The position numbers and the translations under genes are program-made. A stretch of DNA of 64,000 nucleotides from a virus. Location of the stretch: positions 62,001 through 126,000 of the IMG/VR virus record IMGVR_UViG_3300037487_001316; one strand, 5' to 3'. This document shows positions 27,519-50,257 of this stretch, piece by piece; position 1 is the first letter of the stretch; each line of letters starts with the position of its first letter. Under the pieces are notes generated by a model, which saw nothing but the letters and a program-made list of their open reading frames with translations, was not told the origin of the DNA and made no database searches.

Positions 27519-27661
27519 TCTATTTACCGTATAAGACGGTAGAGGAATCACTTAAACTGGCAGGCTACGATGTGTTGGTTTTTGTTCCTTCGATGGACGA
27601 GGAACAAGGATTAGTTACGTGCGGGAATTTGGTATTGTCCAAAAAAATTGACTTAAAATAG
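27519..27661 (+). other. Intergenic stretch with possible small ORF remnant
   Basis: Frame 27515-27661 is open and reads like protein (EESLKLAGYDVLVFVPSM, LVTCGNLVLSKKIDLK) up to a TAG, but has no ATG/GTG/TTG start with a ribosome site at its beginning. Contains a small hairpin (TACCGT/ACGGTA, about 27528-27544). May be a decayed gene or an unusual start. Confidence 0.3.
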
Positions 27662-27676
27662 TAATTCTGCTACAAT
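27648..27676 (+). promoter_or_regulatory. Early sigma70-like promoter
   Basis: TTGACT, 17-base spacer, TACAAT with TGC just upstream; leader of about 54 bases containing a small hairpin (CCCGAC/GTTGGG). Confidence 0.7.
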
Positions 27677-27736
27677 AAGTCATAGTAAGAAAAGTCCCGA
27701 CGATAGAGTTGGGCATTTAAATAAAGGAACTTTATT

Positions 27737-29179
27737 ATGAAACTCTCTAAAAACATTATTTTAAATTCTGACTCGTACAAATACAGTCAGTTCAATCAAT
27801 ACCCTAAAAATACCGAATATGTGTATTCTTACATTGAATCGCGTGGCGGTCAGTGGAACAAAACAGTCTTTTTCGGACTGCAGGCATTTATTAAGGAGTA
27901 TTTGACTACTCCAATCACAAAGGAAGATATTGATGTTGCGGAAGCCATTATCACTGCTCACGGTGAACCGTTTTATCGGGAAGGGTGGGAATATATTCTT
28001 ACGGCGCACGAAGGTCGTCTTCCAGTCGTCATTAAAGCGGCCCCAGAAGGTTGTCTCATACCAACTAAGAACGTATTAGCCACAATTGAAAACACTGACC
28101 GCAACTGCGGCTGGCTGACATCGTTTCTTGAGACTGCAATTCTTCGCGCAATTTGGTATCCGACTACTGTAGCAACAAATAGTTACGAATCGAAGAAAAT
28201 TATCCTCAACGCATTGGAGAAAACAGGTGACCCCACTCTTATTGATTTTAAGTTACATGATTTTGGTGCTCGTGGCGTATCGAGCATGGAAAGTGCTGGT
28301 CTCGGGGGAGCAGCTCACCTCATTAACTTCATGGGTACTGACAATATTAGTGCTCTACTCTACGCTCGCGAGTATTATGGTACTGATATGGCAGGATTCT
28401 CCATTCCGGCCATGGAGCATAGTACAGTAACCAGCTGGGGACGCGAAGGAGAAGTAGACTCATACAGGAACATGCTGAAAACACACGGTAAGGCGGGTTC
28501 TCCGATTGCGTTTGTGTCTGACTCATACGACATTTACAATGCCTGCAAGATGTGGGGCACTGAACTGAAACAAGATGTGCTGGATTCCGGTGCAGTCGTT
28601 GTCATTCGTCCTGACTCAGGTGAGCCAAGCGAAGTAGTTACCAAGTGTCTCTACATTCTGGAAAAGTACTACGGTTCTGTGAAGAACGCTAAGGGCTTCC
28701 GAGTGCTGAACAATGTGCGTGTCATTCAAGGTGACGGCATCGATCACGCCACAATTCGCTCAATTCTGTTTGTCATGGAACTTGCAGGCTTCTCTGCTGA
28801 CAACGTGGCATTTGGTCAAGGTGGTGCGCTGCTTCAACAAGTCAACCGTGACACACTACAGTTTGCTATGAAGTGTTCTGCGATCGGTGTTCGTGAGTAT
28901 GTAGAGTTTAGCGATGATCCAACATTTGTCACCCCGTCTCGGGTAGAATGGCGTGATGTGTTCAAGGATCCGATCACTGATCACGGCAAGGTCTCCAAGA
29001 AGGGTCGCGTAACTCTTTGGAACAGCGGTGGCGAGTATGTATCTGCTGTGGATCAACCACGCGGTTGGGCTGACAAGAGTTTCGGACCATGGGTTGAGGC
29101 TCTCTCGGAAGTTTATCGTGACGGTGTGTTGGTGAAAGAAATCACCTTTGAAGAAGTCCGTGCAAACGCTCGGAGGTAA
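27737..29179 (+). CDS. nadV: Nicotinamide phosphoribosyltransferase
   Basis: 480 residues, full length for the NAMPT/NadV family. Converts nicotinamide and PRPP to NMN. Seen: DSYKYSQFNQYP, YSYIESRGG, FHDFGARG-like LHDFGARGVSSMESAGLGG, FSIPAMEHSTVTSWG, VSDSYDIYNACK, VVIRPDSGEP and FGQGGALLQQVNRDT, all family landmarks. Codons and GC are clearly richer than in neighbouring genes (near 50% GC by eye), suggesting a separate origin. Promoter immediately upstream, AAGGA site. Works with the adenylyltransferase at 26490. Confidence 0.95.
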   Translation: MKLSKNIILNSDSYKYSQFNQYPKNTEYVYSYIESRGGQWNKTVFFGLQAFIKEYLTTPITKEDIDVAEAIITAHGEPFYREGWEYILTAHEGRLPVVIKAAPEGCLIPTKNVLATIENTDRNCGWLTSFLETAILRAIWYPTTVATNSYESKKIILNALEKTGDPTLIDFKLHDFGARGVSSMESAGLGGAAHLINFMGTDNISALLYAREYYGTDMAGFSIPAMEHSTVTSWGREGEVDSYRNMLKTHGKAGSPIAFVSDSYDIYNACKMWGTELKQDVLDSGAVVVIRPDSGEPSEVVTKCLYILEKYYGSVKNAKGFRVLNNVRVIQGDGIDHATIRSILFVMELAGFSADNVAFGQGGALLQQVNRDTLQFAMKCSAIGVREYVEFSDDPTFVTPSRVEWRDVFKDPITDHGKVSKKGRVTLWNSGGEYVSAVDQPRGWADKSFGPWVEALSEVYRDGVLVKEITFEEVRANARR

Positions 29180-29484: not shown

Positions 29485-29501
29485 GAGCCGGGCTCTTTTT
29501 T
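29485..29501 (+). terminator. Short hairpin terminator
   Basis: GAGC/GCTC stem with three-base loop followed by six T, between the convergent nadV operon and the minus-strand late gene. Confidence 0.5.
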
Positions 29502-32361
29502 ATTCGTCTCTTGATGTAGCTACAGTTAGACCAGCTGTACCTAACTTCATTACATCGCCCTTTCCTAATACGGTGCTTTGATAAATTAATGGAAATATCA
29601 TTATATCATTGTCACCCTCATTAGGTCCTAATACATAACGACCATTTGGTCTTAATCCTGCAGCATTTGCTTCAGCAGCACTTAAAGATATGCAAGGCAG
29701 CTTAGTGGCACCCTCAGTCTGTCTTTCTTTCTGTGTTCTAATATGGCTTGTCTTTAGTCCCGATGACTGTTCAAGTGATATCATTAATGTTGGTCTATTT
29801 TCATCATTACTGATATTCGCATAAAATTGTTTACCGAATTCTTTAGCAAAATCTACATTAAAATCGATAGTGACTGATTTTTTAGATTGAGTATCTGTTC
29901 CACCACCGGAATTGATCCACTCCTGGGCATCACTTACGGCATCTTTATTACTCAGTGATACTCCTCTGTGCTTTTCTTCACCCCTTCTATCTAACACCAT
30001 CCATTCTGTCTTGCCACCATCTGTTGATGGGCGATATCTAATTGTCCAACCATGAAAATCTATATTTACGGGTTTGGCCTTTGGTTTAGCTGCCTGTGCA
30101 TCTGTGTGTTGTTTTCCTAATATATCAGCGAATTGATTCATATCGACTGCTTCCAAGAATTTACTTAATCTACTTTCATACGTTTCAGCTAGACCAGCCG
30201 CCTGCGCTTGCTGATCTAGTTGAGCTTTCTTTCTGACCAACTCCTTTTTCATGACAGGACTCTTAGAAGTATGCGGATCCATTTGTATACGTTGTAATTC
30301 TTTACGGCGAGAGAAATAAGCATCTTTACTTAATGCTGGTGCGGCATCTTCTACTTTTACAGTAGATCCTCTCCACTTATCAGTGACATCATTTAGTACA
30401 TCTTGATAATTTACATCGTTAGATGGAGCACAACGATTGATGCCACCCATACCACCTTCATTTACATCACCAATCATAGTTGCATAGTCATCCATTGTGA
30501 GTGTTCTGCCTTCCTGGCTTAACTCGATTAACTTCTCGGCTGCATTGTGCAAATCTAAGTCGGTTTTTGCGTCTTCTTTGGCGTATTCCATGATCCGAAT
30601 CAATAAAGGTACATCTACTGTTACTGTATCGGCAGGATTATTGATTTCTTCGCCTTCCGCCACACCTTTTCTGCCCATCTCACCTTGACGCATACTGTAG
30701 TCAGTATAATCATCTTCGGAGCCTTGGTCAAATGAACCATCTAAACTAGCATCATTAAACGAAGTCGACCATGCATCTTGATATATAGAATCTTCTGGAT
30801 CGTATCCTAAATGTTTAGCAACACGGGCGCCCATCTGTTGGATTGTCTCTGCATCCTTGCCTTGGTCGTATAGCTTGATCAATACACCGGCAATCTTATC
30901 CTTCATTTGTTCGTATTTGATATAGCCGGGAGTAGAGCCTTCCGCCACACCTTGACCCATTGTCTGAACCATACCTGGCTCGAATTTACGTAGATTGATT
31001 CTGCGTGCTTCTAACCATTTTTGTATATCAGGACGATTAAAATTGAAAATCTTACATTCTGCATCAGCATATTGTTGTTGTAAGTCTCCTAACTGCTCTT
31101 TATCTTTAATTCTGGCATAAACTTTCTGTCCATTAGATAATTTAGCATAGAACAGTATATCCTTTCCAGCGTAACCATATGACTTATCTTTAAGTTTACC
31201 TAATGCACGTGGTAAATCTTGTTGTGTGACTCTTTTGGCCTTATCATAATCTGTTCGAGCTAATTCTTTTGCCTTATCTATTCTTGCCGGTACATATCTT
31301 TTCACAGTTTCGCGATCTAATTCATTAATTTGCTCTTCGTCCACATCTTGTTTTTCTGTTGCTGCCTTCTGTGCTGCCCTTCTTTTATCACTTTCACCTT
31401 GATGAAGTGTTGCTTGGTGAATTTTATGATAAAGTTCATCACCTTTCTTATAATCGCCAGCGTCATCCGCAGCAGTTTTTTGTTTACCTATCGCAGCCTT
31501 ATATTTGGTTATAATGTTGTCCATCTCATTTACTTCGGTAGATTCTTTCATCTGACCTAATAACTCTTGTGCTTTTTCTACACTAATTAGAAATCTACCA
31601 AAACGCTGTGGATCGGCAGCTTTCTCTAGATATTCTTTACTATAACCCGATGAAGGCTTTTCTGCAGACGCAGGCGCAGATGTTTGTTGTTTACCGTTTT
31701 CTCTATCCTGTAATTCTGCCTTGGCATTATCAACACTTACCATAAACCGCCCGAAACGATTAGGATCTGCTGCTTTTTGCAAATATTCGGTACTATAACT
31801 ACTGAGATCCTGCCGATTTTGTTGTTGTTGAACACGTTGATTTAATGTAACTTGATCTTGTGGCTGAAACCCTTGCTCTGGATTAAGAGATACGCCGCCA
31901 GCATGTGCGCCACCCGAGCCTAGCGATCCCAATGCCACGGCACCAGCCGCCACCGCATTTTTCCACCCTGCTTCTGTGATCTCATCATCTCCATCTGCAA
32001 GTTTTTCCACAACAGTAACATTATTAGTTGATGTTTTCATTAGTCTGCCATCAGCTAGACGGAAAAATACCACATTCTGATCAATTCTTTCAACTTTACC
32101 TTCCATGTCTGTCTTATTAGTTCGGATATTATCACCTGGTCTGGGAGTATCAGACATATCTTCGTTGGCTGTGGCACGTTCATCACGTTGTCTTTGTTCC
32201 GAACGATCTTGCTCTCTATGCCATTCATCATTACCGGAGTTTTTTCTGGGTGTAGAAGGAAGAGCCTTTAAATGCTTTCTTGATTGTAGATAATCAGTGA
32301 CTCTTTTAGTAATTTCAGGTCCCGATGGAATATCGGCTTCATTAACTTGTGATAACTTCAT
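29500..32361 (-). CDS. Large mosaic late protein with repeats and protease-like sites
   Basis: 953 residues on the minus strand with a late box 22 bases upstream. N-terminus MKLSQVNEA resembles a capsid targeting peptide (cut after V-N-E). Further (V/I/L)-x-E sites separate modules: ITE at 128-130, VNE at 277-279, INE at 345-347, GVAEG at 471-475 and again at 566-570, VNE at 633-635, LAE at 724-726. Residues 131-155 are hydrophobic (NAVAAGAVALGSLGSGG). Two copies of a 32-residue repeat (about 187-218 and 237-269: YLQKAADPNRFGRFMVSV / YLEKAADPQRFGRFLISV). The rest is helical, charged, Gln-rich. No enzymatic motif. Likely an internal head protein processed during maturation, or a long tail component. 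Confidence 0.7.
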   Translation of the reverse strand: MKLSQVNEADIPSGPEITKRVTDYLQSRKHLKALPSTPRKNSGNDEWHREQDRSEQRQRDERATANEDMSDTPRPGDNIRTNKTDMEGKVERIDQNVVFFRLADGRLMKTSTNNVTVVEKLADGDDEITEAGWKNAVAAGAVALGSLGSGGAHAGGVSLNPEQGFQPQDQVTLNQRVQQQQNRQDLSSYSTEYLQKAADPNRFGRFMVSVDNAKAELQDRENGKQQTSAPASAEKPSSGYSKEYLEKAADPQRFGRFLISVEKAQELLGQMKESTEVNEMDNIITKYKAAIGKQKTAADDAGDYKKGDELYHKIHQATLHQGESDKRRAAQKAATEKQDVDEEQINELDRETVKRYVPARIDKAKELARTDYDKAKRVTQQDLPRALGKLKDKSYGYAGKDILFYAKLSNGQKVYARIKDKEQLGDLQQQYADAECKIFNFNRPDIQKWLEARRINLRKFEPGMVQTMGQGVAEGSTPGYIKYEQMKDKIAGVLIKLYDQGKDAETIQQMGARVAKHLGYDPEDSIYQDAWSTSFNDASLDGSFDQGSEDDYTDYSMRQGEMGRKGVAEGEEINNPADTVTVDVPLLIRIMEYAKEDAKTDLDLHNAAEKLIELSQEGRTLTMDDYATMIGDVNEGGMGGINRCAPSNDVNYQDVLNDVTDKWRGSTVKVEDAAPALSKDAYFSRRKELQRIQMDPHTSKSPVMKKELVRKKAQLDQQAQAAGLAETYESRLSKFLEAVDMNQFADILGKQHTDAQAAKPKAKPVNIDFHGWTIRYRPSTDGGKTEWMVLDRRGEEKHRGVSLSNKDAVSDAQEWINSGGGTDTQSKKSVTIDFNVDFAKEFGKQFYANISNDENRPTLMISLEQSSGLKTSHIRTQKERQTEGATKLPCISLSAAEANAAGLRPNGRYVLGPNEGDNDIMIFPLIYQSTVLGKGDVMKLGTAGLTVATSRDE

Positions 32362-32397: not shown

Positions 32398-32426
32398 TTG
32401 ATCTTTCAGTTCACATTGTGTATAAT
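32398..32426 (+). promoter_or_regulatory. Early sigma70-like promoter before cell-wall hydrolase
   Basis: TTGATC, 17-base spacer, TATAAT. The 60-base leader contains a hairpin (GGACTA/TAGTCC, 32439-32455) whose loop region also reads ACTAAATA, a possible weak late box. Confidence 0.65.
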
Positions 32427-32492
32427 GACTTATCCCTAGGACTAAATACTAGTCCCTTGTATATCCAAGAAGGGAATTTAGGAGAAAGAAAG

Positions 32493-33035
32493 ATGATAAC
32501 AGCAAAAATTCTCCTTGCATATCTTTTGAGCACAGCCAACTTCGTCGGAATCGACGTTGACACATCAAAGATTGATCCAGAACAAGCGTATTGCTTGGCT
32601 GAGAACATCTATTATGAGGCCAGAAATGAAGATATTCGAGGTCAATTTGCAGTTGCTTCTGTTACCCTAAATCGTGCAAATGATGCACGATTTCCAAATA
32701 CTGTATGTGGTGTGGTTAAATATACTGCTGTATCTCGTATCAGTAAAAAACTTGTCTGCGCGTTTTCCTGGTATTGCGAAAATGACAAGAAGGGTAGAGA
32801 AATACCTGTAAGAAATAAAGACGGAACCGTTAATCAACGAGTAGTTGATCAATTTCAGGTTGCTAGTATTGTAGCGATTACAGCACTTGGCGGAACTGTC
32901 GAAGACAACACAAATGGGGCAACCCATTTTCACAACCCATACACGAGTCAGCCGGCATGGCGTAATGAGTTAAAGAGAACCATAAGATTAGGTAATCACG
33001 ATTTTTATAAGATGCCACCACAGAAAGTAGATTAA
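32493..33035 (+). CDS. SleB-like cell-wall hydrolase (possible lysin)
   Basis: 180 residues from ATG 32493 (AGGAG eight bases upstream); the in-frame GTG at 32418 lies in the promoter. The N-terminus ITAKILLAYLLSTANFVG looks like a signal sequence. Hydrolase_2/SleB pattern: CLAENIYYEARNED (catalytic Glu), GQFAVASVTLNRA, CAFSWYC, GATHFHNPY, RTIRLGNHDFYK. Known: such domains cut peptidoglycan glycan strands. Candidate endolysin or virion-entry enzyme. Ends six bases before a strong terminator. Confidence 0.88.
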   Translation: MITAKILLAYLLSTANFVGIDVDTSKIDPEQAYCLAENIYYEARNEDIRGQFAVASVTLNRANDARFPNTVCGVVKYTAVSRISKKLVCAFSWYCENDKKGREIPVRNKDGTVNQRVVDQFQVASIVAITALGGTVEDNTNGATHFHNPYTSQPAWRNELKRTIRLGNHDFYKMPPQKVD

Positions 33036-33063: not shown

Positions 33064-33345
33064 ATGGGATATATACCACCACAACCACCTAACTGGAGAT
33101 GCGACCCGGGTCTTGTATCTATATACGAATATAAGAGAAAGTTTGCATTATTACCGGTTAAATGTGATGATGGAACAAAAGTATGGTTTAAATTCTATTA
33201 CAAGAAATACGAAATCTGGTCACATGGTAGATTTGGAGTCAAAGGATCTCTCAATTTTGATGAAAATGATTATTTACATACCGACTTTATTGGATGTCTA
33301 ACAGAAGCTGATTATATAGTCTGCCGACTTGTTGAAGGATTTTGA
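33064..33345 (+). CDS. Small hypothetical protein after terminator
   Basis: 93 residues with aromatic beta strands (KVWFKFYYKKYEIWSHGRFGVKG). ATG directly follows the T-run of a terminator, so it depends on read-through or an unseen promoter. No ribosome site. Unknown function; the start may be elsewhere. Confidence 0.5.
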   Translation: MGYIPPQPPNWRCDPGLVSIYEYKRKFALLPVKCDDGTKVWFKFYYKKYEIWSHGRFGVKGSLNFDENDYLHTDFIGCLTEADYIVCRLVEGF

Positions 33346-33370
33346 CTTTCGTTAGATTTTCGTGTACACT
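33342..33370 (+). promoter_or_regulatory. Early sigma70-like promoter
   Basis: TTGACT, 17-base spacer, TACACT. Leader about 13 bases with AGGAG before the thyX ATG. Confidence 0.7.
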
Positions 33371-33389
33371 TTGCATATCAGGAGAAGAT

Positions 33390-34076
33390 ATGCAAGATAA
33401 TATTATAAAAGTTTTAGATCATGGCCATGTAAGATTGGTCGAAAGCATGGGTAGCGACTTATCCATTGTGCGTAATGCCAGAGTATCGTATGATGCAGAC
33501 TGGCGTGCAGGTGACGACGATGGCAAAGATGCCAAATTGCTCCATTACCTATTAAAAAATAAACATACAAGCCCGTTTGAATCCTGTGTTTTTACATTTG
33601 ACGTAAAAGCACCTATCTTTGTATTTAGACAGTGGCATAGACATCGTACTTGGAGTTTCAATGAGATTTCTGCTCGTTATGCAGAGCTGCCAGAAGAGTT
33701 TTATGTCCCGGCGTTAGATCAAATCACCACTCAATCGGCATCAAATAAGCAGATGCGTACAGATGAGCAGCACCCGGATGCCGCTGGCGTAGCCGAAATT
33801 ATCAAATCAGCGAGTGAAGCTTCGTTTAATCACTACCATAAGCTAATATTAAATGGTTGTCCGCGTGAGTTGGCACGATCAGTATTACCGGTCGGGACAT
33901 ATAGTCATATGTTTGCTACCTGCGACTTACATAACCTATTCCACTTCCTTAAACTTCGGCTACATTCACATGCTCAATATGAAATTAGAGTATATGCGGA
34001 AGCAATGCTCAAATTAATCGAACCTATCGTCCCGATTTCCACAGCCGCTTTCAGAGAACACATATTAGGGGCATAA
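33390..34076 (+). CDS. thyX: FAD-dependent thymidylate synthase
   Basis: 228 residues from ATG 33390 (AGGAG upstream; the in-frame upstream ATG at 33342 lies in the promoter). Makes dTMP from dUMP using FAD and methylene-folate. Seen: the ThyX signature RHRTWSFNEISARY, the N-terminal RNARVSYDADW and the C-terminal LRLHSHAQYEIRVYAEAM. Feeds dNTP synthesis together with the class II RNR and dCMP deaminase. Confidence 0.95.
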   Translation: MQDNIIKVLDHGHVRLVESMGSDLSIVRNARVSYDADWRAGDDDGKDAKLLHYLLKNKHTSPFESCVFTFDVKAPIFVFRQWHRHRTWSFNEISARYAELPEEFYVPALDQITTQSASNKQMRTDEQHPDAAGVAEIIKSASEASFNHYHKLILNGCPRELARSVLPVGTYSHMFATCDLHNLFHFLKLRLHSHAQYEIRVYAEAMLKLIEPIVPISTAAFREHILGA

Positions 34077-34077
34077 T

Positions 34078-34407
34078 ATGATTTATTTAACCGCGGAAGA
34101 GACAGAAAAGATTGCATTATTAGATAAGATATTCCGGGTATTATCTGCAGACGATATTAAGCAGCTTTTTGGTTGTGATCTAGTTGTCGGTAAGCTTAAA
34201 GGGGTAGAAACAAAGGGCCCAGGGCGTTTATCAGAGGTATTAACTGAATTACAAGTCTTGCAGAATATGGTAGCATCGTTACAAATAGAAAGTACAAGTT
34301 TAAAGAATGATTTTCAGTCTCTAATACGGTGTTTAAATAAAGGCATGGGCGATTCTACTGCTTCCAGTGATTTCTACACTCTAAAAAGCAAGCACGGTGT
34401 CTATTAA
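34078..34407 (+). CDS. Small coiled-coil hypothetical protein
   Basis: 109 residues; a long central coiled coil (LSEVLTELQVLQNMVASLQIESTSLKNDFQSLI). One base after thyX, so co-transcribed. No known domain. Confidence 0.65.
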   Translation: MIYLTAEETEKIALLDKIFRVLSADDIKQLFGCDLVVGKLKGVETKGPGRLSEVLTELQVLQNMVASLQIESTSLKNDFQSLIRCLNKGMGDSTASSDFYTLKSKHGVY

Positions 34408-34409
34408 TT

Positions 34410-34417
34410 GATAAATA
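34410..34417 (+). promoter_or_regulatory. Late promoter box GATAAATA
   Basis: GATAAATA 58 bases before the folE ATG; the leader carries AAGGA. Confidence 0.5.
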
Positions 34418-34475
34418 ACTGTGCTACACAAAGGTAGCAAAAATCAAAAACATACCATCACAAAGGAAGGTACAT

Positions 34476-35156
34476 ATGTCATACAATAAAACAAAATGCG
34501 ATCCCATTCTGGGTCAACAAGTACACGAACATCTGATTAAAATGGGCGTCGAAACGCCAACGTTTCAAACATCGCTAGATCGTAAAGATAAAATAGTCGA
34601 AATTGAAAAATCATTTGCACATATCATGCAGGTGTTAGGTCTAGATCTCGACGATGATTCCCTGATCGAAACACCGAAGCGTGTTGCCAAGATGTATGTG
34701 AACGAAATCTTTTGGGGGCTTGATTATGAGGCGTTCCCAAAATGCACTACAGTAGATAATAAGATGAAATACGACGAAATGGTCGTTGAAAGGGACGTAA
34801 ATGTACAATCTAACTGCGAACATCACTTTGTTGTTATTGATGGTCTTGCAACGGTCGCTTATATTCCTAAGCAAAAGGTACTGGGCCTTAGTAAAATTAA
34901 TCGGATCGTTGAATACTTTAGTAAGAGGCCGCAAATCCAAGAGCGACTGACTGAACAGGTCTTTCATGCTCTTCAATATATCTTAGAAACAGATAATATT
35001 GGTGTAGTTATTCATGCTCAACACTTTTGCGTTAAGAGTCGTGGCGTTGAAGACTCTGGTTCCAGTACTGTAACAAGTAAACTGGGAGGAGTCTTCAAGT
35101 CTGACCCAAATGTTAGAACCGAGTTTATGAGATTAGTATCGATAACCAAGGATTGA
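34476..35156 (+). CDS. folE: GTP cyclohydrolase I
   Basis: 226 residues. Opens GTP to dihydroneopterin triphosphate, the first step of folate, pterin and 7-deazaguanine synthesis. Seen: the zinc/active-site blocks NCEHHFVVIDG and HFCVKSRGV, plus LGLSKINRIVEYFSKRPQIQERL, all diagnostic. With QueD nearby the most likely product use is the 7-deazaguanine (preQ) route, but folate support for ThyX is also possible. Confidence 0.95.
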   Translation: MSYNKTKCDPILGQQVHEHLIKMGVETPTFQTSLDRKDKIVEIEKSFAHIMQVLGLDLDDDSLIETPKRVAKMYVNEIFWGLDYEAFPKCTTVDNKMKYDEMVVERDVNVQSNCEHHFVVIDGLATVAYIPKQKVLGLSKINRIVEYFSKRPQIQERLTEQVFHALQYILETDNIGVVIHAQHFCVKSRGVEDSGSSTVTSKLGGVFKSDPNVRTEFMRLVSITKD

Positions 35157-35157
35157 T

Positions 35158-35505
35158 ATGTCTAAGAAACGAATGTTTGACAAATTACGGCAAATACCTG
35201 TCGGAGAGATGTTAGAAAAATTACACGAAATTAGAAAACCGTCTCCTGCCATATGGTTGGGAGAAATCACGAAATCGCGAGATGATTATTATACAGATGT
35301 ACAATTTCATTTCGAACGAGTTAAGTTATTAGAGAAGCATGGCTGGAAATACGAAGAATTTCTTTTAGAATTAGAAAAGAAAAGCATACTAGACCTGATT
35401 AGAGAATTTAATGATAATATACAATTCCCTGCAGAATTAGTTGACCGGGCAAAACGATTTTTTCCTAATGCAAAATTTATACAGGCAAGCATTGAGCTTG
35501 AATAA
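35158..35505 (+). CDS. Small hypothetical protein between folE and queD
   Basis: 115 residues, charged, helical (FERVKLLEKHGWKYEEFLLELEKKSILDLIREF). One base after folE and two before queD, so transcribed with both. No domain recognised; a role tied to pterin or deazaguanine metabolism is only a guess from position. Confidence 0.65.
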   Translation: MSKKRMFDKLRQIPVGEMLEKLHEIRKPSPAIWLGEITKSRDDYYTDVQFHFERVKLLEKHGWKYEEFLLELEKKSILDLIREFNDNIQFPAELVDRAKRFFPNAKFIQASIELE

Positions 35506-35507
35506 TC

Positions 35508-35984
35508 ATGACAAAATATATAAGTACAAAAACATATAATCAACTAGGTCCAGTAGCATATCGTCAGTGGAGGTCAGATTCTCATTGTAATCTTATCCAC
35601 GGATATGCCTTATCATTTCATCTCGAGTTTGAAGCCGATACATTAGATGCCCGTAATTGGGTGTTTGACTTTGGCGGATTAAAACCTCTTAAGGGTGTTC
35701 TTGAAGATTGGTTTGATCATACATTACTTGTTGCAGAAGATGACCCAATGAAAGCTGAATTATTACACTTAGGTGAGTTAAAATTGGCAAAAATTACTGT
35801 GGTTGAGAAAGCAGGGTGCGAAGGTATTGCTGATTTCATATATGAATATATCAACACAATCTTTTTACCTAATTGCGGATCAGCAGAAGCAGAACGAGTA
35901 TGGTGCTGTAAAGTAGAAGTAAGAGAAACAGATGCAAATATGGCATTACGCCAAGGTCATCGCGAAGATAACGAATACCAATAA
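35508..35984 (+). CDS. queD: 6-carboxytetrahydropterin synthase (QueD/PTPS family)
   Basis: 158 residues. Converts dihydroneopterin triphosphate toward the 7-deazaguanine precursor. Seen: SHCNLIHGYALSFHLEFEA (zinc His and Cys region), NWVFDFGGLKPLKGVLEDWFDHTLLV, and the C-terminal CCKVEVRETDANMA with the substrate Glu. QueE and QueC are not in this window. Known phages use this route to modify DNA or tRNA. Confidence 0.88.
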   Translation: MTKYISTKTYNQLGPVAYRQWRSDSHCNLIHGYALSFHLEFEADTLDARNWVFDFGGLKPLKGVLEDWFDHTLLVAEDDPMKAELLHLGELKLAKITVVEKAGCEGIADFIYEYINTIFLPNCGSAEAERVWCCKVEVRETDANMALRQGHREDNEYQ

Positions 35985-36024: not shown

Positions 36025-37419
36025 ATGACTTTTGCACTATTAACTCTCTTATCAGCCTTATCTTTGGCTGCTGTAGCTGATTGGTTCTCTATAATCGGTT
36101 TTATGGCAATTTACGCCGCTTCTCCACTACATGCCCTTATTATGGGCATAGTATTGGCATTAGCAAAATTAGTTACTACCAGTTGGCTTTACAGAAATTG
36201 GAAATTCATTAATTGGCGGCTTAAATTTCCACTAATAGGATTTATATTAGCTCTTATGATTGCCACTAGTATAGGTACTTTCGGCTTTTTGAGCAAAGCC
36301 CATCTAGAGCAAACTGGTGGTACAATAGATAATGGTGCTAAAGTAGAGAGATTAGAGCAACAAATAGCAAGAGAAAAATCAGTAATTGCAGATGATGAAA
36401 AAGTTATCACACAATTGGATGCAACAATTAATTCTTATATTGGAAAAGATAGAACAGATAAATCTTTGGCAGTTAGAAAAAGTCAGGCACCGCAGCGTAA
36501 ACAATTAAGAGATGATATTGATGCCTCACAGAAGCGTATTGATACATTCAGTGATGAAAAATTGAAATTACAATCAGAAGTTAGAAAGCAACAGTTGGAT
36601 GTAGGTCCTATTAGGTATATTGCGGAATTATTTTACGGTGTGGCAGCTGATGCCGGAAAGAATATAGAAGCAGCGGTGCGGATATTCACTCTTCTTATTG
36701 TATCGACACTTGATCCACTTGCTGTTATACTATTAGTAGCTGCAAACCATACATTGTTAAGATTACGAGATGAGAAAAAGAAGTACGATTCGGAAGAGAT
36801 TGACGGGGTACCTAAGTCAGGGAGTATTGTGGCCGATGTCCCGATCAAAGTGGTTAAGGAAGCTGCACAAGATATCAAATCTCCCGCCAAAACCTCTACG
36901 AATACCGAGATACGAAAGGTGATCAATGAGGAAGAAGATACAGTATTGGAGAACATCCAACTCAACAGATCCGTTGATGCGCCTTTACCCGTCATACGTC
37001 AACCTAGTTATTCGAGAGTTAGCAGCGGGGAGGACACTAATCGTATTCCCACATCAATCGCCACCGAGATATTGGATGAGATACAGGAAGAACCTGTAAA
37101 TACAACTATACAAGAATCGGCACCTCATTTTATCCCACAAAAACTTAATGAAGAAGAGAAAAATATACAGGCAACGGATGAAAGTGAGTATATCAGGGAA
37201 GACATCCTGGCCGTTCATACCGATACCCAGACCGATGTCACCCCACATACAGAGGCCGAGAAAACTGAAGAAATATTCGAAGCACGACCGGGTATTATTA
37301 AAGAACTGGCGCAAAATGATACCACATCGGTGGCCGAGCCTGTCGCGCCCGGTACCAAGAATAGGTATCCGACAGCCTTAAGTTGGTTAGCAGAATTTAA
37401 AAGGACACAAAATGGATAA
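36025..37419 (+). CDS. Membrane protein with coiled coil and long acidic tail
   Basis: 464 residues. Three or four N-terminal transmembrane helices (about 1-95: MTFALLTLLSALSLAAVADWF, ALIMGIVLALAKLVTTSWLY, FPLIGFILALMIATSIGTF) then a coiled coil (about 105-190: VERLEQQIAREKSVIADDEKV), one more hydrophobic helix near 225-245 (FTLLIVSTLDPLAVILLVAAN), and a disordered acidic C-terminal 200 residues. The pattern LAKLVTTSWLYRNWK and GFLSKAHLEQ is widespread in T4-like aquatic phages. Function unknown; it sits directly before clpX and overlaps it by eight bases. Confidence 0.8.
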   Translation: MTFALLTLLSALSLAAVADWFSIIGFMAIYAASPLHALIMGIVLALAKLVTTSWLYRNWKFINWRLKFPLIGFILALMIATSIGTFGFLSKAHLEQTGGTIDNGAKVERLEQQIAREKSVIADDEKVITQLDATINSYIGKDRTDKSLAVRKSQAPQRKQLRDDIDASQKRIDTFSDEKLKLQSEVRKQQLDVGPIRYIAELFYGVAADAGKNIEAAVRIFTLLIVSTLDPLAVILLVAANHTLLRLRDEKKKYDSEEIDGVPKSGSIVADVPIKVVKEAAQDIKSPAKTSTNTEIRKVINEEEDTVLENIQLNRSVDAPLPVIRQPSYSRVSSGEDTNRIPTSIATEILDEIQEEPVNTTIQESAPHFIPQKLNEEEKNIQATDESEYIREDILAVHTDTQTDVTPHTEAEKTEEIFEARPGIIKELAQNDTTSVAEPVAPGTKNRYPTALSWLAEFKRTQNG

Positions 37420-38647
37420 AACTGAAGAAACTAATGTTAAGAAGCTTATTAATTGTTCCTATTGTGGGAAAAGTAGACATCAAGTAGAACAAATGGTTGA
37501 AGGTCCGGAATTTGGTGGCAAAAATATTTATATATGTAATGAATGTGTAGATGTTACATATAATATTCTACATACTGAAGAAGTAGATGTTAGCATAAAG
37601 AAAAAGAAAGAAAAAATTCCAACTCCTGAACAAATTAAGGAGTTTTTAGATACATATGTCATTGGACAAGATGGTGCTAAGGTAGCAATTTCTGTTGCGG
37701 TCTATAATCACTATAAACGAATCAATAATAAGACTAAAACCGAAATTGAAAAATCTAATCTATTAATGATAGGTGAAAGTGGCTGTGGTAAGACACTTAC
37801 AGTAAAGACCATTGCGAAACTGTTTGACATACCTTATGTAATTGCTGATGCTACAACACTAACCGAAGCTGGATATGTTGGTGAAGATGTAGAAAATTTA
37901 ATTAGACGGTTGGTACAAAATGCTGATGACGATCTAGAGAAAGCCCGCCTCGGTATTATTTTTATTGATGAAATTGATAAGAAGAGTCGTAGAAGTGAGT
38001 CTGCTTCTGTTAGTAGAGATGTTTCAGGCGAAGGTGTACAACAAGCATTATTGAAACTTATTGAAGGCACTATTGTAAAGATAGACGATGGGTATGATGA
38101 TCCTGTTGATTTTGATACAAAGGATATTCTATTTGTTTGCAGCGGCGCATTTGTGGGATTAGATGAAGTTATCAGAAAAAATCGGTCAAAGACAAGCATC
38201 GGTATAGGTGCAAACCTAAACATGAAGTCTTCTTTCTCAAATGTAGTGAAAGATATACAACCAGACGATCTTATTAAATACGGTCTTATTCCAGAGTTCG
38301 TTGGCCGTTGCCCTGTCACAGTTGTATTTGATGATCTTACTGCGGATATGATGATTAGAATATTAAAAGAACCGAAAAATAGTATTGTAGAACAATTTAA
38401 GGCATTATTTAAGTATGAAGGCGTCACTTTAGACTTCGATGATAAATACCTACATAACGTTGCAGAAAGTTGTTTAAAACAGAAAATTGGAGCAAGAGGT
38501 TTGCGTTCAATTATGGAGAAAGATCTCCAGGCTACTCAATTTATTCTGCCCAGATTAGCAAAGGATGGTGTTAACAAGATTTTTGTTGATGCTAGTGGAA
38601 CAATTAAACATGTATACAAGGCAAAGAAACGAGCAAACAATGAGTAA
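37412..38647 (+). CDS. clpX: ATP-dependent unfoldase ClpX
   Basis: 411 residues, near the length of bacterial ClpX (about 424). Unfolds tagged proteins and feeds them to ClpP. Seen: N-terminal zinc-binding domain with CSYC (residues 15-18) and CNEC (42-45), Walker A GESGCGKT (about 121-128), pore loop AGYVGED, Walker B IIFIDEIDK, and the C-terminal sensor region KIGARGLRSIMEKDL. The IGF loop region that docks to ClpP appears poorly conserved (SFSNVVKDIQPDDL around residues 270-283), so partner choice is uncertain. ClpP is encoded at 49661. Confidence 0.93.
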   Translation: MDKTEETNVKKLINCSYCGKSRHQVEQMVEGPEFGGKNIYICNECVDVTYNILHTEEVDVSIKKKKEKIPTPEQIKEFLDTYVIGQDGAKVAISVAVYNHYKRINNKTKTEIEKSNLLMIGESGCGKTLTVKTIAKLFDIPYVIADATTLTEAGYVGEDVENLIRRLVQNADDDLEKARLGIIFIDEIDKKSRRSESASVSRDVSGEGVQQALLKLIEGTIVKIDDGYDDPVDFDTKDILFVCSGAFVGLDEVIRKNRSKTSIGIGANLNMKSSFSNVVKDIQPDDLIKYGLIPEFVGRCPVTVVFDDLTADMMIRILKEPKNSIVEQFKALFKYEGVTLDFDDKYLHNVAESCLKQKIGARGLRSIMEKDLQATQFILPRLAKDGVNKIFVDASGTIKHVYKAKKRANNE

Positions 38648-38900
38648 ACAATACAGAGATAGTAGAAAACATAGGGGTATGACAGTGGAAGTACGCAATG
38701 ATGACTTCGGTCGGGCATTACGCACATTTAGCAAGAAGATCCAAGACTCTGGATTACTTCAAATTGTTAAAGAAAAAATGGCCTATGAGAAACCGGCTGT
38801 ATTAAGACAACGTCTGAAAAAACAAGCTCGTAAACGCTGGGAAAGAACTGTTGAGGAAATGATCACTAATGGTCATTGGCATAAAGATAAAAAGTACTAA
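38640..38900 (+). CDS. rpsU: Ribosomal protein bS21 homologue
   Basis: 86 residues from ATG 38640, overlapping the clpX stop. Seen: MTVEVRNDDFGRALRTF then KIQDSGLLQIVKEKMAYEKPAVLRQRLKKQARKRW, matching bS21 (short acidic-start helix, E-K-P segment, basic tail). Known: bS21 is needed for initiation at the anti-Shine-Dalgarno end of 16S rRNA, and several large phages carry it, likely to direct host ribosomes to phage messages. Slightly extended N- and C-termini compared with bacterial bS21 (about 70 residues). Followed by a strong terminator. Confidence 0.88.
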   Translation: MSKQYRDSRKHRGMTVEVRNDDFGRALRTFSKKIQDSGLLQIVKEKMAYEKPAVLRQRLKKQARKRWERTVEEMITNGHWHKDKKY

Positions 38901-38916
38901 TCTAAACTAAAGTTTC

Positions 38917-38946
38917 AAGTAAAGGCCTTTAAAGGCCTTTACTTTT
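38917..38946 (+). terminator. Palindromic terminator
   Basis: Perfect palindrome GTAAAGGCC...GGCCTTTAC (38919-38942) followed by TTTT; ends the clpX-bS21 unit. Confidence 0.85.
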
Positions 38947-38949
38947 GGA

Positions 38950-38957
38950 GATAAATA
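38950..38957 (+). promoter_or_regulatory. Late promoter box GATAAATA
   Basis: GATAAATA 22 bases before the metacaspase ATG at 38980, immediately after a terminator. Confidence 0.6.
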
Positions 38958-38979
38958 TGTGATATTGGAGATATTACAT

Positions 38980-39918
38980 ATGAAAAAACGTGCCTTACTT
39001 GTCGGAATTAACTATGTTGGAACAGACCACGAATTACATGGTTGCATAAATGATTCTAATAACATAAAAACATTCCTTTCAACTCGCGGTTTTACTGAAG
39101 TTAAGCAAATACTAGAAGAAAATGCAACAACTGACCGCATAAAGGCAGGACTCAGCTGGCTAGTTGCCGATACACAACCCGGTGACGTCATTGTTTTCCA
39201 TTATAGCGGTCATGGTTCTCAGTTACCTAGTGCAGATGAAGCAGATGGCTTTGAAGAAATTATATGTCCCGTGGATTTAGATTGGGCAACAAAGATTATA
39301 ACAGATAAAGATTTACGAAATATATTCAATACAGTTCCAAATGGTGTTAATACAACTGTAATACTCGATTGTTGCCATTCGGGTACAATGTTAAATCAAA
39401 CCGAAAGTTTAAATGGTACAAAAGCTATACCTAAAGCACCTAGAAAGGTTAAAGGAGCACGTTATTTAAAGCCGCCAACTAAGATTAAGGCAAAACTTAA
39501 AGATCGTTCATTGGTAAATTGGAGTACATCAAAAGATGTTAATGCAACTGCACTACTTATAGCAGGTTGTCACGCAAATCAGACTTCAGCTGATGCTAAT
39601 ATTGGTGGTATTGCTCAAGGTGCTGCCACTGCTGCTTTATTACAAGCAGTAAGTAAACATCCTGCAATCACTTATAGAGAATTAGTAACAATTATGATAG
39701 GTTTTATGGTATCTAACAAGTTTACACAGGTACCTGAACTAGATGGTTCGGCTGCATTATATGATAAGGTTTTTATCGAACCGTTTACTTTTAATAAACC
39801 TCTTACACCACCAGATAGCACACAAGTTAAGAAATCGAATATTTTACTTATTATTAGTTCTATAGTAACATATATTACATCATTATTGTCGGGTAGTAGA
39901 ACCAACAAAGATAAATAA
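38980..39918 (+). CDS. Metacaspase (caspase-like protease) with C-terminal membrane segment
   Basis: 312 residues from ATG 38980 (GGAG nine bases upstream; the in-frame GTG at 38959 lies in the late box region). Clan CD peptidase: KRALLVGINYVG (strand 1), FHYSGHGSQ with catalytic His about residue 78, and ILDCCHSGT with catalytic Cys about residue 132; LLIAGCHANQTSAD follows as in type I metacaspases. Residues about 287-304 (NILLIISSIVTYITSLL) form one hydrophobic helix with a short basic tail, a tail-anchor-like end. Late promoter. Known metacaspases cut after Arg/Lys. A role in host killing, lysis or virion processing is inferred. Confidence 0.9.
   Translation: MKKRALLVGINYVGTDHELHGCINDSNNIKTFLSTRGFTEVKQILEENATTDRIKAGLSWLVADTQPGDVIVFHYSGHGSQLPSADEADGFEEIICPVDLDWATKIITDKDLRNIFNTVPNGVNTTVILDCCHSGTMLNQTESLNGTKAIPKAPRKVKGARYLKPPTKIKAKLKDRSLVNWSTSKDVNATALLIAGCHANQTSADANIGGIAQGAATAALLQAVSKHPAITYRELVTIMIGFMVSNKFTQVPELDGSAALYDKVFIEPFTFNKPLTPPDSTQVKKSNILLIISSIVTYITSLLSGSRTNKDK
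39910..39917 (+). promoter_or_regulatory. Possible late box GATAAATA in metacaspase stop region
   Basis: GATAAATA formed by the last codons (Asp-Lys-stop) 96 bases before hsp20; could be a coincidence of coding. Confidence 0.3.
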
Positions 39919-39921
39919 TTA

Positions 39922-39949
39922 TGTAAAGTGCCCATGGTGGGGCTTTACA
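39922..39949 (+). terminator. Hairpin after metacaspase gene
   Basis: TGTAAAG/CTTTACA stem extended inward by GCCC/GGGG with a bulge; no T-run, so weak. Confidence 0.4.
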
Positions 39950-40013
39950 AATTAGCGGTATGATACCGCAACGTGTTTTGATATAGCACGATAAACTTGC
40001 TTAAGGAGTAATT

Positions 40014-40424
40014 ATGTCACACAACGATTTCACACGATTATTTAATCAACTCGAAGCTATGAGTATTGGTTTCGCACCAGTATTCAGGGATTTCCAAGTA
40101 CAAACAAACAACTATCCACCACATAATATTGTCAGTGTCACCGATAATGAATTCTATCTCGAACTTGCGGTAGCCGGTTTTAAGAAGGATGAAGTTAAGA
40201 TGGAAGAGCATCAGGGTTTGTTGACTATTACTGGTGATAAGGCTGCTGGCCCAGATTCAACCTACCAATATCGCGGTATTGCTGGTCGTTCATTCTCAAA
40301 GAGCTTCCGTATTGCCGAATATTTTGAAGTAAGCAATGCAGCTTTAGAGGATGGTATTCTAACAGTACATTTTACAAAGAATGTGCCGGATGAAGCGAAG
40401 CCTAAATTGATAATGATAAAATAA
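40014..40424 (+). CDS. Small heat-shock protein, Hsp20 family
   Basis: 136 residues. ATP-independent chaperone that holds unfolding proteins. Seen: PPHNIVSVTDNEFYLELAVAGF, GLLTITGDK, RGIAGRSFSKSFRI, ALEDGILTVHF, the alpha-crystallin strand pattern, IbpA/IbpB-like in length. Strong AAGGAG ribosome site. Ends in a bidirectional terminator. A T4-like phage Hsp20 is known in cyanophages. Confidence 0.93.
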   Translation: MSHNDFTRLFNQLEAMSIGFAPVFRDFQVQTNNYPPHNIVSVTDNEFYLELAVAGFKKDEVKMEEHQGLLTITGDKAAGPDSTYQYRGIAGRSFSKSFRIAEYFEVSNAALEDGILTVHFTKNVPDEAKPKLIMIK

Positions 40425-41245: not shown

Positions 41246-41551
41246 ATGCCAGAAATTGAAGTCATTGAGAAGATAGATGAAACCATCAAAGTACAAATTC
41301 CAAAGATGTACAAGGTGTTGCTTCATAACGACGACAAAACCACATTTGATTTTGTAATTGCTGTATTAATGCGTATTTTTCATAAGACTGCTGAAGATGC
41401 TATTATTATAACAAAGGCAATTCACGAAACCGGCCAAGGTATCGCGGGTGCTCCTTATACACGAGAGGTGGCAGAAGAAAAAACACTCGAGACGGTAAGT
41501 TTCGCCAGAGCAAATAATTTTCCGTTAACTCCTACCTTTGAAGAATTATAA
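41246..41551 (+). CDS. clpS: Clp protease adaptor ClpS
   Basis: 101 residues. ClpS binds N-degron substrates and hands them to ClpA or ClpC. Seen: MYKVLLHNDDKTTFDFVIAVL (the N-degron pocket Asn-Asp-Asp), MRIFHKTAEDAIIITKAIHETGQGIAG and the C-terminal VSFARANNFPLTPTFEE, a clear family match. No ClpA/ClpC is present in the window, so it would act with the host AAA partner or with a gene outside the window. Only a weak promoter candidate upstream. Confidence 0.93.
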   Translation: MPEIEVIEKIDETIKVQIPKMYKVLLHNDDKTTFDFVIAVLMRIFHKTAEDAIIITKAIHETGQGIAGAPYTREVAEEKTLETVSFARANNFPLTPTFEEL

Positions 41552-41581: not shown

Positions 41582-42619
41582 ATGTCAGAAAATCTAATAC
41601 CAGTTAAAGCCTTTTTAGGGAAATATTATTCGGAACTATTATATTCGGCCGCACAGGACAAATATAAAGAAACAGGTCTGGATTCATTTTTTGAACAAAG
41701 ATTTTATATCCAAAATAACAAAGTACAGATGATAGTTGATCCTGCTGTTAGCGGGTTGAATATTCTAGTATTTGGTAATGAAATTCACATTAGCAAAGAG
41801 CTATTTGATCATCCTAATGTTGTTGTTAGCAATTCTCTCGAGAATAACCAGATTACTAATCCGAGGAGTCTCTATAATCCCGAGACTTTTTCAACTATGG
41901 CATACTTAGTATGCCAAAATCATACCACATTACAGATAGTGGGTGAGATAGACGAACCTATCTATGTGAAATACAAATCCGATTATGAAACTTTCTATAG
42001 TTCAGTGCTTGTTTTTAATATTTCTAATGAAGTAGAAGTAGAAATAGTTGAAGAAATCGAAAGTCTTAGTGCGTTAAATGTTGTTACCAACTATGTATTG
42101 AGCCCGGATGCTAAACTCAACCTGACTACTTTTTACCAAAATCATATATCGGCGTTATCATTCTGCTATAGGAATGTCATTACACAAGATAATTCATCCT
42201 TTAATCATGTCTTATTTGGTAAAGGGTCATCCAATGTCATTGATGAAAATAAAATACATGCTTCGAGCAAATCAAAGACAGAGTTGCTCGGTATTGTAAA
42301 TTCGGATGGTAAAGATTTTCATTCTATCTTATATGTAGAACCAGCCGCACAAGATTATAATATTGCTGTAAATTATAGGGATATTATATATGGTAAAGCA
42401 AAGGTAACTTACCTTCCTGTTATAATGGGTCAAGTTCCTGAGGGTGATACAGCAACTATTGAAGTTTCAAATATCACGCTCGAAGAGATTCCAAATGATA
42501 GGGTAGAAGAAGAAGTAAAGCAATTTGTGGCTGATATAGTTGGCCGCGCTACACTAGGAAGAATGATCGGGGTAAAGAGATTTTATGACAATAAGACTAA
42601 GTTTCTTAACTTTCAATAA
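41582..42619 (+). CDS. SufD/SufB-like beta-helix protein, probable Fe-S assembly
   Basis: 345 residues. Beta-helical appearance through most of its length. The order of elements fits SufD: PIYVKYKSDYETFYSSVLVFNIS, VEIVEEIES, NVVTNYVLSPDAKLNLTTFYQN, a tract of repeated strands (SSNVIDENKIHASSKSKTELLGIVNSD) and a C-terminal block NYRDIIYGKAKVTYLPVI. The highly conserved SufB/D His and Cys are not obvious, so activity is uncertain. Together with the A-type carrier at 50254 it would make a partial SUF-type Fe-S set. Alternative: a phage structural beta-helix. Confidence 0.45.
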   Translation: MSENLIPVKAFLGKYYSELLYSAAQDKYKETGLDSFFEQRFYIQNNKVQMIVDPAVSGLNILVFGNEIHISKELFDHPNVVVSNSLENNQITNPRSLYNPETFSTMAYLVCQNHTTLQIVGEIDEPIYVKYKSDYETFYSSVLVFNISNEVEVEIVEEIESLSALNVVTNYVLSPDAKLNLTTFYQNHISALSFCYRNVITQDNSSFNHVLFGKGSSNVIDENKIHASSKSKTELLGIVNSDGKDFHSILYVEPAAQDYNIAVNYRDIIYGKAKVTYLPVIMGQVPEGDTATIEVSNITLEEIPNDRVEEEVKQFVADIVGRATLGRMIGVKRFYDNKTKFLNFQ

Positions 42620-49660: not shown

Positions 49661-50257
49661 ATGCAAAATGCTTTGATCCCAATGGTCGTAGAACAGACCG
49701 CTCGCGGCGAACGCTCTTACGATCTTTATTCTCGTTTAATGAAGGAACGAGTAGTTTTCTTTACTGGAGAAGTAGAGACTCATATGTGTAATATTATCGT
49801 TGCACAACTTCTATTTTTGGAAGCAGAGAATCCAGAACAGCCGATAAATATGTATGTAAACTCTCCAGGTGGCAGTGTTTATGATGGTTTAGCAGTGTAT
49901 GATGTTATGCAATATATCAAATGCCCGGTAGCAACTTATGTTACAGGAATGGCAGCTAGTATGGGCAGTTTTATCGCCCAAGCAGGTGCACCAGGCATGC
50001 GTTATTTATTGCCCCGCGCCATTACAATGATTCATCAACCGTCTTCGGGAACTAGAGGTAAAGTTTCCGATATGGAAATTGATTTAATTGAGAGTCTTCG
50101 TATTAAGAAAGAAATGACCGAACTTTATGTAAAGCACAATTCTAGAGGCACTACATACGAACGATTTGCAGAACTTATGGATAGAGACAAATGGTTGACA
50201 GCGCCGCAGGCTTTAGAGCTTGGTCTAGCAGATCATATTGTTGAAAAGAGAGTATGA
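49661..50257 (+). CDS. clpP: ATP-dependent Clp protease proteolytic subunit
   Basis: 198 residues, the length of bacterial ClpP. Seen: the catalytic triad Ser100 in GMAASMGSF, His125 in MIHQPSSG and Asp174 in LMDRDKWL, at the same spacing as in E. coli ClpP (97/122/171); [16 protein letters not shown] is the oxyanion region. The protein begins [19 protein letters not shown] as mature ClpP does. Degrades proteins fed by ClpX. Overlaps the Fe-S carrier gene by four bases. Confidence 0.95.

What the first reader, a model, noticed from the sequence alone, without database searches (positions are those of the whole stretch)
38980..39918. Late-expressed phage metacaspase with a C-terminal membrane anchor
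The His/Cys dyad (SGHG, DCCHSG) is intact, a GATAAATA late box and good ribosome site precede it, and the C-terminus has a single hydrophobic helix. Metacaspases are typical of bacterial and algal cell death; a membrane-anchored copy in a T4-like phage, between bS21 and Hsp20, could trigger or time host death or lysis, or process virion proteins.
Basis: partly seen in the sequence, partly recalled or inferred. Interest (0 to 1): 0.82.

Follow-up and report, generated by a model that had tools for sequence, protein, structure and literature searches.

The report
Membrane-anchored metacaspase of giant phages
A very large bacteria-killing virus carries an intact gene for a caspase-like protein-cutting enzyme, fastened to the cell membrane by its tail and probably made late in infection; such enzymes are best known from cell death in plants, algae, fungi and bacteria and had hardly been noticed in phages, and here it looks like an optional tool for controlling the host rather than a standard lysis or virion gene.

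Summary
ORF 38980-39918 is a complete p20-p10 metacaspase: Peptidase_C14 E 6.5e-33, AlphaFold2 pLDDT 84.7, best solved match Arabidopsis MCA9. The His78/Cys132 dyad and the acidic S1 pocket are conserved, and dN/dS is about 0.06-0.23. A GATAAATA box lies 29-32 nt before the start in all seven clade members checked. The C-terminal helix is a real tail anchor: strong in every relative (Kyte-Doolittle 2.9-3.2), weakest in the window copy (1.83), absent from other phage metacaspases and from the 80 nearest cellular ones. The record is a fragment of a jumbo, T4-type phage lineage. The block QueD-TM-ClpX-bS21-[slot]-Hsp20-ClpS-SufBD is shared by about 28 contigs, but only 11 have the metacaspase in the slot. 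Others have it empty or filled with envelope genes, and none of 14 such records has a C14 gene anywhere. That argues against virion maturation or an obligatory lysis role. I favour a membrane-displayed Arg/Lys-specific protease acting on host proteins late in infection; its substrate is unknown. Among 50,697 GenBank phages one unannotated homologue was found. Giant viruses of protists and some cyanobacteria have related proteins: a new variant of a known kind.

The parts
38980..39918 (+). Metacaspase, 312 aa: p20 (about 1-140), Lys/Arg-rich p20-p10 linker (about 140-190), p10 (about 190-268), short linker, C-terminal helix
   Evidence: Pfam PF00656 E 6.5e-33; AlphaFold2 pLDDT 84.7, pTM 0.80; Foldseek to metacaspases
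39205..39216 (+). SGHG, residues 76-79; catalytic His78
   Evidence: sequence; invariant His in 29 phage homologues; maps to TbMCA2 H158
39367..39384 (+). DCCHSG, residues 130-135; catalytic Cys132
   Evidence: sequence; invariant in 29 phage homologues; maps to TbMCA2 C213
39043..39054 (+). CIND, residues 22-25; with Ser76 and Asp130 the acidic S1 pocket for Arg/Lys at P1
   Evidence: alignment to T. brucei MCA2 C92/D95/S156/D211
39841..39897 (+). C-terminal tail-anchor helix, residues 288-306 (AF2 helix 281-305)
   Evidence: hydropathy and comparison with clade; AF2 helix
38950..38957 (+). GATAAATA late-promoter-like box
   Evidence: enrichment and conservation at -29 to -32 in 7 clade members
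38967..38970 (+). GGAG ribosome-binding site, 9 nt from ATG
   Evidence: sequence
38914..38947 (+). Hairpin then TTTT after bS21, probable intrinsic terminator separating bS21 from the metacaspase unit
   Evidence: -17.8 kcal/mol, z -3.96; not called by the consensus scan
39916..39954 (+). Hairpin after the metacaspase stop codon
   Evidence: -14.1 kcal/mol, z -3.0
37412..38647 (+). ClpX (zinc finger + AAA+), conserved core of the block
   Evidence: PF06689, PF07724; PDB ClpX E 2e-120, IGF loop reads IGI
38640..38900 (+). bS21, left border of the variable slot
   Evidence: PF01165 E 1e-13
40014..40424 (+). Hsp20, right border of the variable slot
   Evidence: PF00011 E 4.5e-14
41246..41551 (+). 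ClpS adaptor with intact NDD..T and His residues of the N-degron pocket
   Evidence: PF02617 E 2.1e-24; alignment to solved ClpS
41582..42619 (+). SufBD-core-like protein, conserved core of the block
   Evidence: PF01458 E 1.3e-6; 28 viral loci
49661..50257 (+). ClpP with catalytic Ser/His/Asp motifs
   Evidence: PF00574 E 4e-68; sequence

Best explanation
The gene encodes an active, Arg/Lys-specific metacaspase made late in infection and held in the host inner membrane by a C-terminal tail anchor, with the catalytic domain facing the cytoplasm. It is an accessory host-takeover protease: optional cargo in a variable slot, between bS21 and Hsp20-ClpS, of the proteostasis block of a lineage of jumbo T4-type phages. 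Most likely it nicks host proteins at or near the membrane (envelope regulators or membrane-bound defence proteins). SHOWN: family membership, intact active site, purifying selection, conserved tail anchor, conserved late-type box, accessory distribution. INFERRED: proteolytic activity, P1 specificity, topology, late expression. GUESSED: the substrates and the benefit to the phage.
For: Family and fold. Dyad and S1 pocket conserved. dN/dS 0.06 for the closest pair and about 0.09-0.23 for the others that could be computed, many of them near saturation. Tail anchor in every clade member with a C-terminus, absent from other phage metacaspases and the 80 nearest cellular ones. In most relatives the charges near the helix are Lys on its N-terminal side and the chain ends within 0-1 residue after it, which by the positive-inside rule puts the enzyme in the cytoplasm. 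Late-type box. The clade is all-viral with 100/100 support. Accessory slot: 11 contigs with and about 17 without the gene in the same block; no C14 hit anywhere in 14 sister records up to 369 kb. The slot otherwise carries L,D-transpeptidase, exported proteins, GT2, polysaccharide deacetylase, GH16 or an EAL phosphodiesterase, i.e. mostly envelope or surface functions.
Against: No substrate, activity or expression data. The anchor of the window copy itself is marginal, so this copy may be membrane-peripheral. The TbMCA2 Ca2+ ligands are only half kept in this copy (E92 and D109 kept; K110 and N139 in place of D190 and D220), so activation could differ. The envelope theme of the slot is guilt by association, and the window itself has none of those genes beside the metacaspase.
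Confidence: 0.5

Rival explanations
1. Lysis or cell-death effector: late accumulation at the membrane lets the metacaspase cut membrane or envelope proteins, hastening or timing lysis alongside the endolysin (32418-33035).
For: Late-type box, membrane anchor, metacaspase association with cell death (PMC3501461, PMC9415839); relatives carry a cell-wall enzyme (YkuD L,D-transpeptidase) directly upstream.
Against: Relatives without the gene must lyse too. The endolysin is 6 kb away in another unit. A metacaspase does not cut peptidoglycan. Killing before virions are complete would be costly.
Confidence: 0.15
2. Feeder of the N-degron route: metacaspase cuts expose new N-termini which the phage ClpS hands to a Clp protease, so nicked host proteins are destroyed completely.
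For: The phage encodes ClpS with an intact N-degron pocket, ClpX and catalytic ClpP, all within 13 kb; both large records with the tail-anchored enzyme have ClpS and ClpP.
Against: ClpS, ClpX and ClpP are just as present in sister phages without metacaspase, so there is no special linkage. ClpS classically serves ClpA or ClpC, not ClpX.
Confidence: 0.15
3. Counter-defence or superinfection exclusion: it destroys a membrane-bound abortive-infection effector or an entry factor for competing phages.
For: Accessory, patchy, slot-bound distribution typical of defence and counter-defence genes; membrane location; bacterial orthocaspase MaOC1 degrades an antitoxin (PMC7935541), so such enzymes can act on small regulatory proteins.
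Against: No target identified. A late promoter would be late for counter-defence. This is a sub-case of the favoured reading rather than a clear alternative.
Confidence: 0.15
4. Virion maturation protease acting on head or tail proteins.
For: Late-type promoter box; T4-type phages use maturation proteases.
Against: Missing from many close relatives with the same block. T4-type phages have their own prohead protease (established knowledge). A tail anchor is unexpected for an assembly protease.
Confidence: 0.04
5. Decaying or inactive copy: in this phage the gene is losing function, as the weak anchor and lack of the neighbouring cassette suggest.
For: Anchor weakest in the clade; Ca2+ ligands half lost; cassette absent.
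Against: Dyad, S1 pocket, p10, promoter box and ribosome site all intact; no frame damage; purifying selection in the clade.
Confidence: 0.08

Closest known systems
Type I metacaspases / prokaryotic metacaspases or orthocaspases (MEROPS C14B), e.g. T. brucei MCA2, yeast Mca1, MaOC1 of Microcystis
   Same: p20-p10 fold, His/Cys dyad, acidic S1 pocket residues, Lys/Arg-rich linker
   Different: no N-terminal prodomain; phage-encoded; tail-anchored; Ca2+ ligands only partly kept in this copy
Cyanobacterial metacaspases with a C-terminal transmembrane helix (seven species; PMC3501461)
   Same: same layout: metacaspase domain predicted intracellular, then one C-terminal helix
   Different: cellular; sequence relationship to the phage clade not tested here; none of the 80 nearest cellular homologues retrieved has such a helix
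Metacaspases of giant viruses of protists (Fadolivirus, medusaviruses, Clandestinovirus)
   Same: virus-encoded metacaspase fold, best BFVD matches (E 1e-21 to 1e-13)
   Different: eukaryotic hosts; no shared gene context; tail anchors not examined there
Other phage metacaspases found here (L014, L018-L051)
   Same: C14 domain with dyad in large phage or phage-like contigs
   Different: no C-terminal anchor; a separate group (L044-L050) has N-terminal hydrophobic or amphipathic stretches and L051 a lipoprotein-like signal; no shared gene block seen in those tested
Jumbo-phage proteostasis genes (ClpP, ClpS, ClpX, Hsp20 near bS21; PMC7824862, PMC9723584)
   Same: the surrounding block is of this known kind
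   Different: 'caspase' does not occur in PMC7824862; no caspase-like protease was seen in the passages read of PMC9723584

Membership tests
Metacaspase (Peptidase_C14 / C14B) | Caspase-fold domain above curated family cut-off | tested here: met
   114.8 bits against cut-off 21.4; Foldseek to metacaspases E down to 5.6e-24
Metacaspase (Peptidase_C14 / C14B) | His/Cys catalytic dyad | tested here: met
   H78 and C132, invariant in 29 homologues
Metacaspase (Peptidase_C14 / C14B) | Acidic S1 pocket for Arg/Lys (not Asp) at P1 | tested here: met
   C22, D25, S76, D130 align to TbMCA2 C92, D95, S156, D211; specificity itself not assayed
Metacaspase (Peptidase_C14 / C14B) | Ca2+-binding site (TbMCA2 D173, D189, D190, D220) | tested here: inconclusive
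   E92 and D109 kept; K110 and N139 replace the other two; several relatives keep all four acids
Metacaspase (Peptidase_C14 / C14B) | Peptidase activity and autoprocessing | not testable with these tools
   needs purified protein
Type I metacaspase | N-terminal Pro/Gln-rich prodomain | tested here: not met
   protein starts at the first beta strand (residues 3-9); so type I-like in p20-p10 order only
Type II metacaspase | Long (over 100 aa) linker between p20 and p10 | tested here: not met
   linker about 50 aa (residues 140-190), although MCA9 is the best structural match
Tail-anchored membrane protein | Single hydrophobic helix at the very C-terminus, no signal peptide, catalytic domain N-terminal | tested here: met
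   all clade members with a C-terminus; marginal hydrophobicity in the window copy
Tail-anchored membrane protein | Insertion into the inner membrane | not testable with these tools
   needs fractionation or a topology reporter
T4-type phage gene | Record shows T4-type structural genes | tested here: inconclusive
   TerL in the record; T4 portal found in the 385-kb relative, not in this fragment; Gp23 match only partial
Core phage gene (lysis or virion) | Present in all close relatives | tested here: not met
   11 contigs with, about 17 without; 14 of 14 sister records without any C14 match

The most novel reading that the evidence does not exclude
A virus-borne, membrane-tethered two-step destruction route: the phage metacaspase nicks host membrane-proximal proteins after Arg/Lys late in infection, and the phage's own ClpS with ClpX/ClpP removes the fragments through their new N-termini. 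This would be the first caspase-family effector known to be wielded by a bacteriophage against its host.
Probability: 0.13. Interest if true: 0.9.

Novelty: new variant of a known kind. Interest (0 to 1): 0.66.

Why it matters
Caspase-family proteases in bacteria are usually discussed as the host's own death or anti-phage machinery. A lineage of giant phages that keeps one under purifying selection, behind its own late-type promoter and fixed in the membrane, suggests that phages use the same enzyme class against the host. The natural set of phages with and without the gene at one locus, plus strong-anchor and weak-anchor versions, makes a direct test possible. It also shows that C14 proteases in phages are far commoner in metagenomes (about 40 loci here, in several unrelated groups) than in GenBank phages, where one unannotated hit was found.

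Tried and rejected
(1) Contamination or host fragment: rejected, the same gene at the same place in 10 other viral contigs, and phage genes all round. (2) Chance hydrophobic stretch: rejected by conservation in the clade, though the window copy alone would be borderline (4th highest of 74 ORFs in the window). (3) Close cellular source: a genome scan with the clade-specific alignment found none; a broader scan gave at best 42% identity, mainly from uncultured deltaproteobacterial and acidobacterial genomes, none tail-anchored. (4) Special linkage of metacaspase to ClpS/ClpP: rejected, those genes are core also in phages without it. (5) First structure model from 7 sequences was poor (pLDDT 61.8); replaced by the 29-sequence model. 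(8) Backbone tree: gain and loss pattern unresolved, about 4 changes needed, weak support. (9) Literature searches for a phage-encoded metacaspase gave none in the held open-access library; subscription papers and preprints were not searchable.

Full report
WHAT IS THERE. The ORF at 38980-39918 encodes 312 residues and is a Peptidase_C14 protein (Pfam E 6.5e-33, residues 2-255). By sequence its nearest solved relatives are type I metacaspases of fungi and trypanosomes and plant metacaspases. A model built from 29 phage homologues has mean pLDDT 84.7 and pTM 0.80; its best PDB matches are Arabidopsis metacaspase 9 (E 5.6e-24, TM 0.70), metacaspase 4, TbMCA2, Geobacter GSU0716 and yeast Mca1. 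In the alignment to TbMCA2, H78 and C132 take the places of H158 and C213, and C22, D25, S76 and D130 those of the Arg/Lys pocket C92, D95, S156 and D211 (residue roles of TbMCA2 from established knowledge). The dyad is invariant in 29 phage homologues. Two of the four TbMCA2 Ca2+ ligands are replaced in this copy (K110, N139) while several relatives keep all four, so Ca2+ dependence is open.

EXPRESSION SIGNALS. GATAAATA stands at 38950-38957. The octamer is enriched in the window (19 against 7.2 +/- 2.4). Sixteen of 19 are in non-coding DNA and 14 within 70 bp upstream of a same-strand start. It is kept at -29 to -32 from the metacaspase start in all seven clade members with upstream DNA, although the flanking DNA differs. 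The likeness to T4/cyanophage late promoters is from general knowledge; late timing is inferred, not measured. A stable hairpin followed by T's lies between bS21 and the box (-17.8 kcal/mol, z -4.0) and another hairpin follows the stop codon (-14.1, z -3.0). The gene therefore looks like a separate transcription unit. The consensus terminator scan did not call these two.

THE ANCHOR. Every clade member with a C-terminus ends in a hydrophobic helix (L002, L003, L004, L007, L008, L015, L016, L017, L161/L141). It has Kyte-Doolittle means of 2.9-3.2, ends within one residue of the chain end, and is preceded in most by a short proline-rich linker and a juxtamembrane Lys. The window copy has the weakest helix (1.83; Hessa sum +1.15) and a 6-residue charged tail. 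None of the other phage metacaspases has a C-terminal helix, nor have the 80 nearest cellular homologues. In prokaryotes at large the layout is known: a 2012 survey found it in seven cyanobacteria (PMC3501461). By the positive-inside rule the relatives' enzyme faces the cytoplasm (inference).

THE PHAGE. The window is 62001-126000 of a 134-kb virus record which has a TerL outside the window. Its relative G001/L017 is 385 kb with the same block, a T4-type portal (E 6.4e-105), TerL, ClpS and ClpP. The tail-anchored clade is entirely viral with 100/100 support and groups with other viral-contig metacaspases (L018, L019, L022-L024). Viral and cellular metacaspases interleave elsewhere in the tree, so phages probably acquired such genes several times. 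In 50,697 GenBank phage records only one unannotated uncultured phage has a detectable homologue (none for the L044 type). BFVD matches with E <= 0.001 are mainly giant viruses of eukaryotes, none from a phage.

ACCESSORY, NOT CORE. Scans with the SufBD-like and ClpX proteins brought in sister contigs. The order QueD - membrane protein - ClpX - bS21 - [slot] - Hsp20 - ClpS - SufBD - p42.6 is shared by about 28 contigs, sometimes with Hsp20 missing. Eleven contigs, some near-identical, hold the metacaspase in the slot; about 17 do not. The latter include L136 and L172, whose ClpX is 90-91% identical to the window's and in which bS21 is followed directly by Hsp20. No C14 gene is found anywhere in 14 such records of 19-369 kb; most are fragments. 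In other relatives the slot holds exported proteins (some collagen-like) and a YkuD L,D-transpeptidase, a GT2 glycosyltransferase, polysaccharide deacetylase and GH16 protein, or an EAL phosphodiesterase. The slot thus carries mainly envelope and surface functions. The gain/loss history is unresolved (about four changes, weak support). Selection on the metacaspase is purifying: omega 0.06 for the closest pair, about 0.09-0.23 for the other computable pairs, many of them near saturation.

HOW IT PROBABLY WORKS. A gene that close relatives do without is unlikely to be the maturation protease or an indispensable lysis trigger. A late, membrane-tethered Arg/Lys protease in a slot of host- and envelope-directed genes most likely acts on host proteins at the membrane. 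Substrates could be envelope regulators, defence effectors or entry factors; nothing here decides among them. The complete phage ClpX-ClpP-ClpS set, with an intact ClpS pocket and a ClpX whose IGF loop reads IGI, makes an N-degron hand-over conceivable. That set is equally present in phages without metacaspase, so the gene context does not specifically support it.

NOVELTY. Metacaspases, virus-encoded metacaspases (of eukaryotic viruses) and C-terminally anchored bacterial metacaspases are all known. Phage proteostasis blocks with bS21, Hsp20 and Clp genes are known too (PMC9723584, PMC7824862). A tail-anchored metacaspase clade of jumbo phages at a defined accessory locus was not found in the held literature. 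I rate it a new variant of a known kind.

Noticed in passing
window 49661-50257 with 37412-38647 and 41246-41551: The phage carries catalytic ClpP, ClpX and ClpS together; ClpP is found in 9 of 14 sister records and two records carry a second ClpP-like match.
   Followed up: partly
L148 2740-6508, L153 2409-6092, L154, L156, L176 3450-7278: In relatives the slot carries a poly-N-acetylglucosamine-like cassette: GT2 synthase, exported polysaccharide deacetylase, L,D-transpeptidase-like protein, GH16 protein. It looks like phage-made surface polysaccharide.
   Followed up: partly
L169 8497-10077 (-): A phage-borne CSS-EAL c-di-GMP phosphodiesterase (EAL E 1.1e-56) sits in the same slot on the opposite strand.
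   Followed up: no
L005 3881-5544, L003 135-1759, L006 3864-5553: Exported Gly-rich, collagen-like (GDKGDKG) and second signal-peptide proteins with a conserved C-terminal domain of unknown function precede the metacaspase in most clade members.
   Followed up: no
L044-L050, L051: A second group of viral-contig metacaspases has an N-terminal hydrophobic or amphipathic stretch, and L051 a lipoprotein-like signal, hinting at independent routes to membrane attachment.
   Followed up: no
G012 268758-270095, G014 408162-409499: Portal genes of two metacaspase-bearing giant phages contain one in-frame TAG, suggesting stop-codon reassignment.
   Followed up: no
L017 6976-7000: The metacaspase of the 385-kb relative has a one-base difference that breaks the frame near codon 9; real mutation or sequencing error.
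   Followed up: no
window 41582-42619: A SufBD-core-like protein of a phage, conserved in 28 viral loci; no other Suf gene seen among the annotated neighbours.
   Followed up: no
window 26490-29179 and 33342-35984: NAD salvage pair (cytidyltransferase/NUDIX and nicotinamide phosphoribosyl transferase) and ThyX, GTP cyclohydrolase, QueD genes.
   Followed up: no
window 29500-32361 (-): A 953-aa minus-strand ORF with its own GATAAATA box and no family match, where GC and AT skew flip; possibly a tail fibre.
   Followed up: no
L147 5367-6083: The slot of a 369-kb relative holds an exported protein ending in a weak PEP-CTERM match, a sorting signal that would point to a PEP-CTERM host.
   Followed up: no
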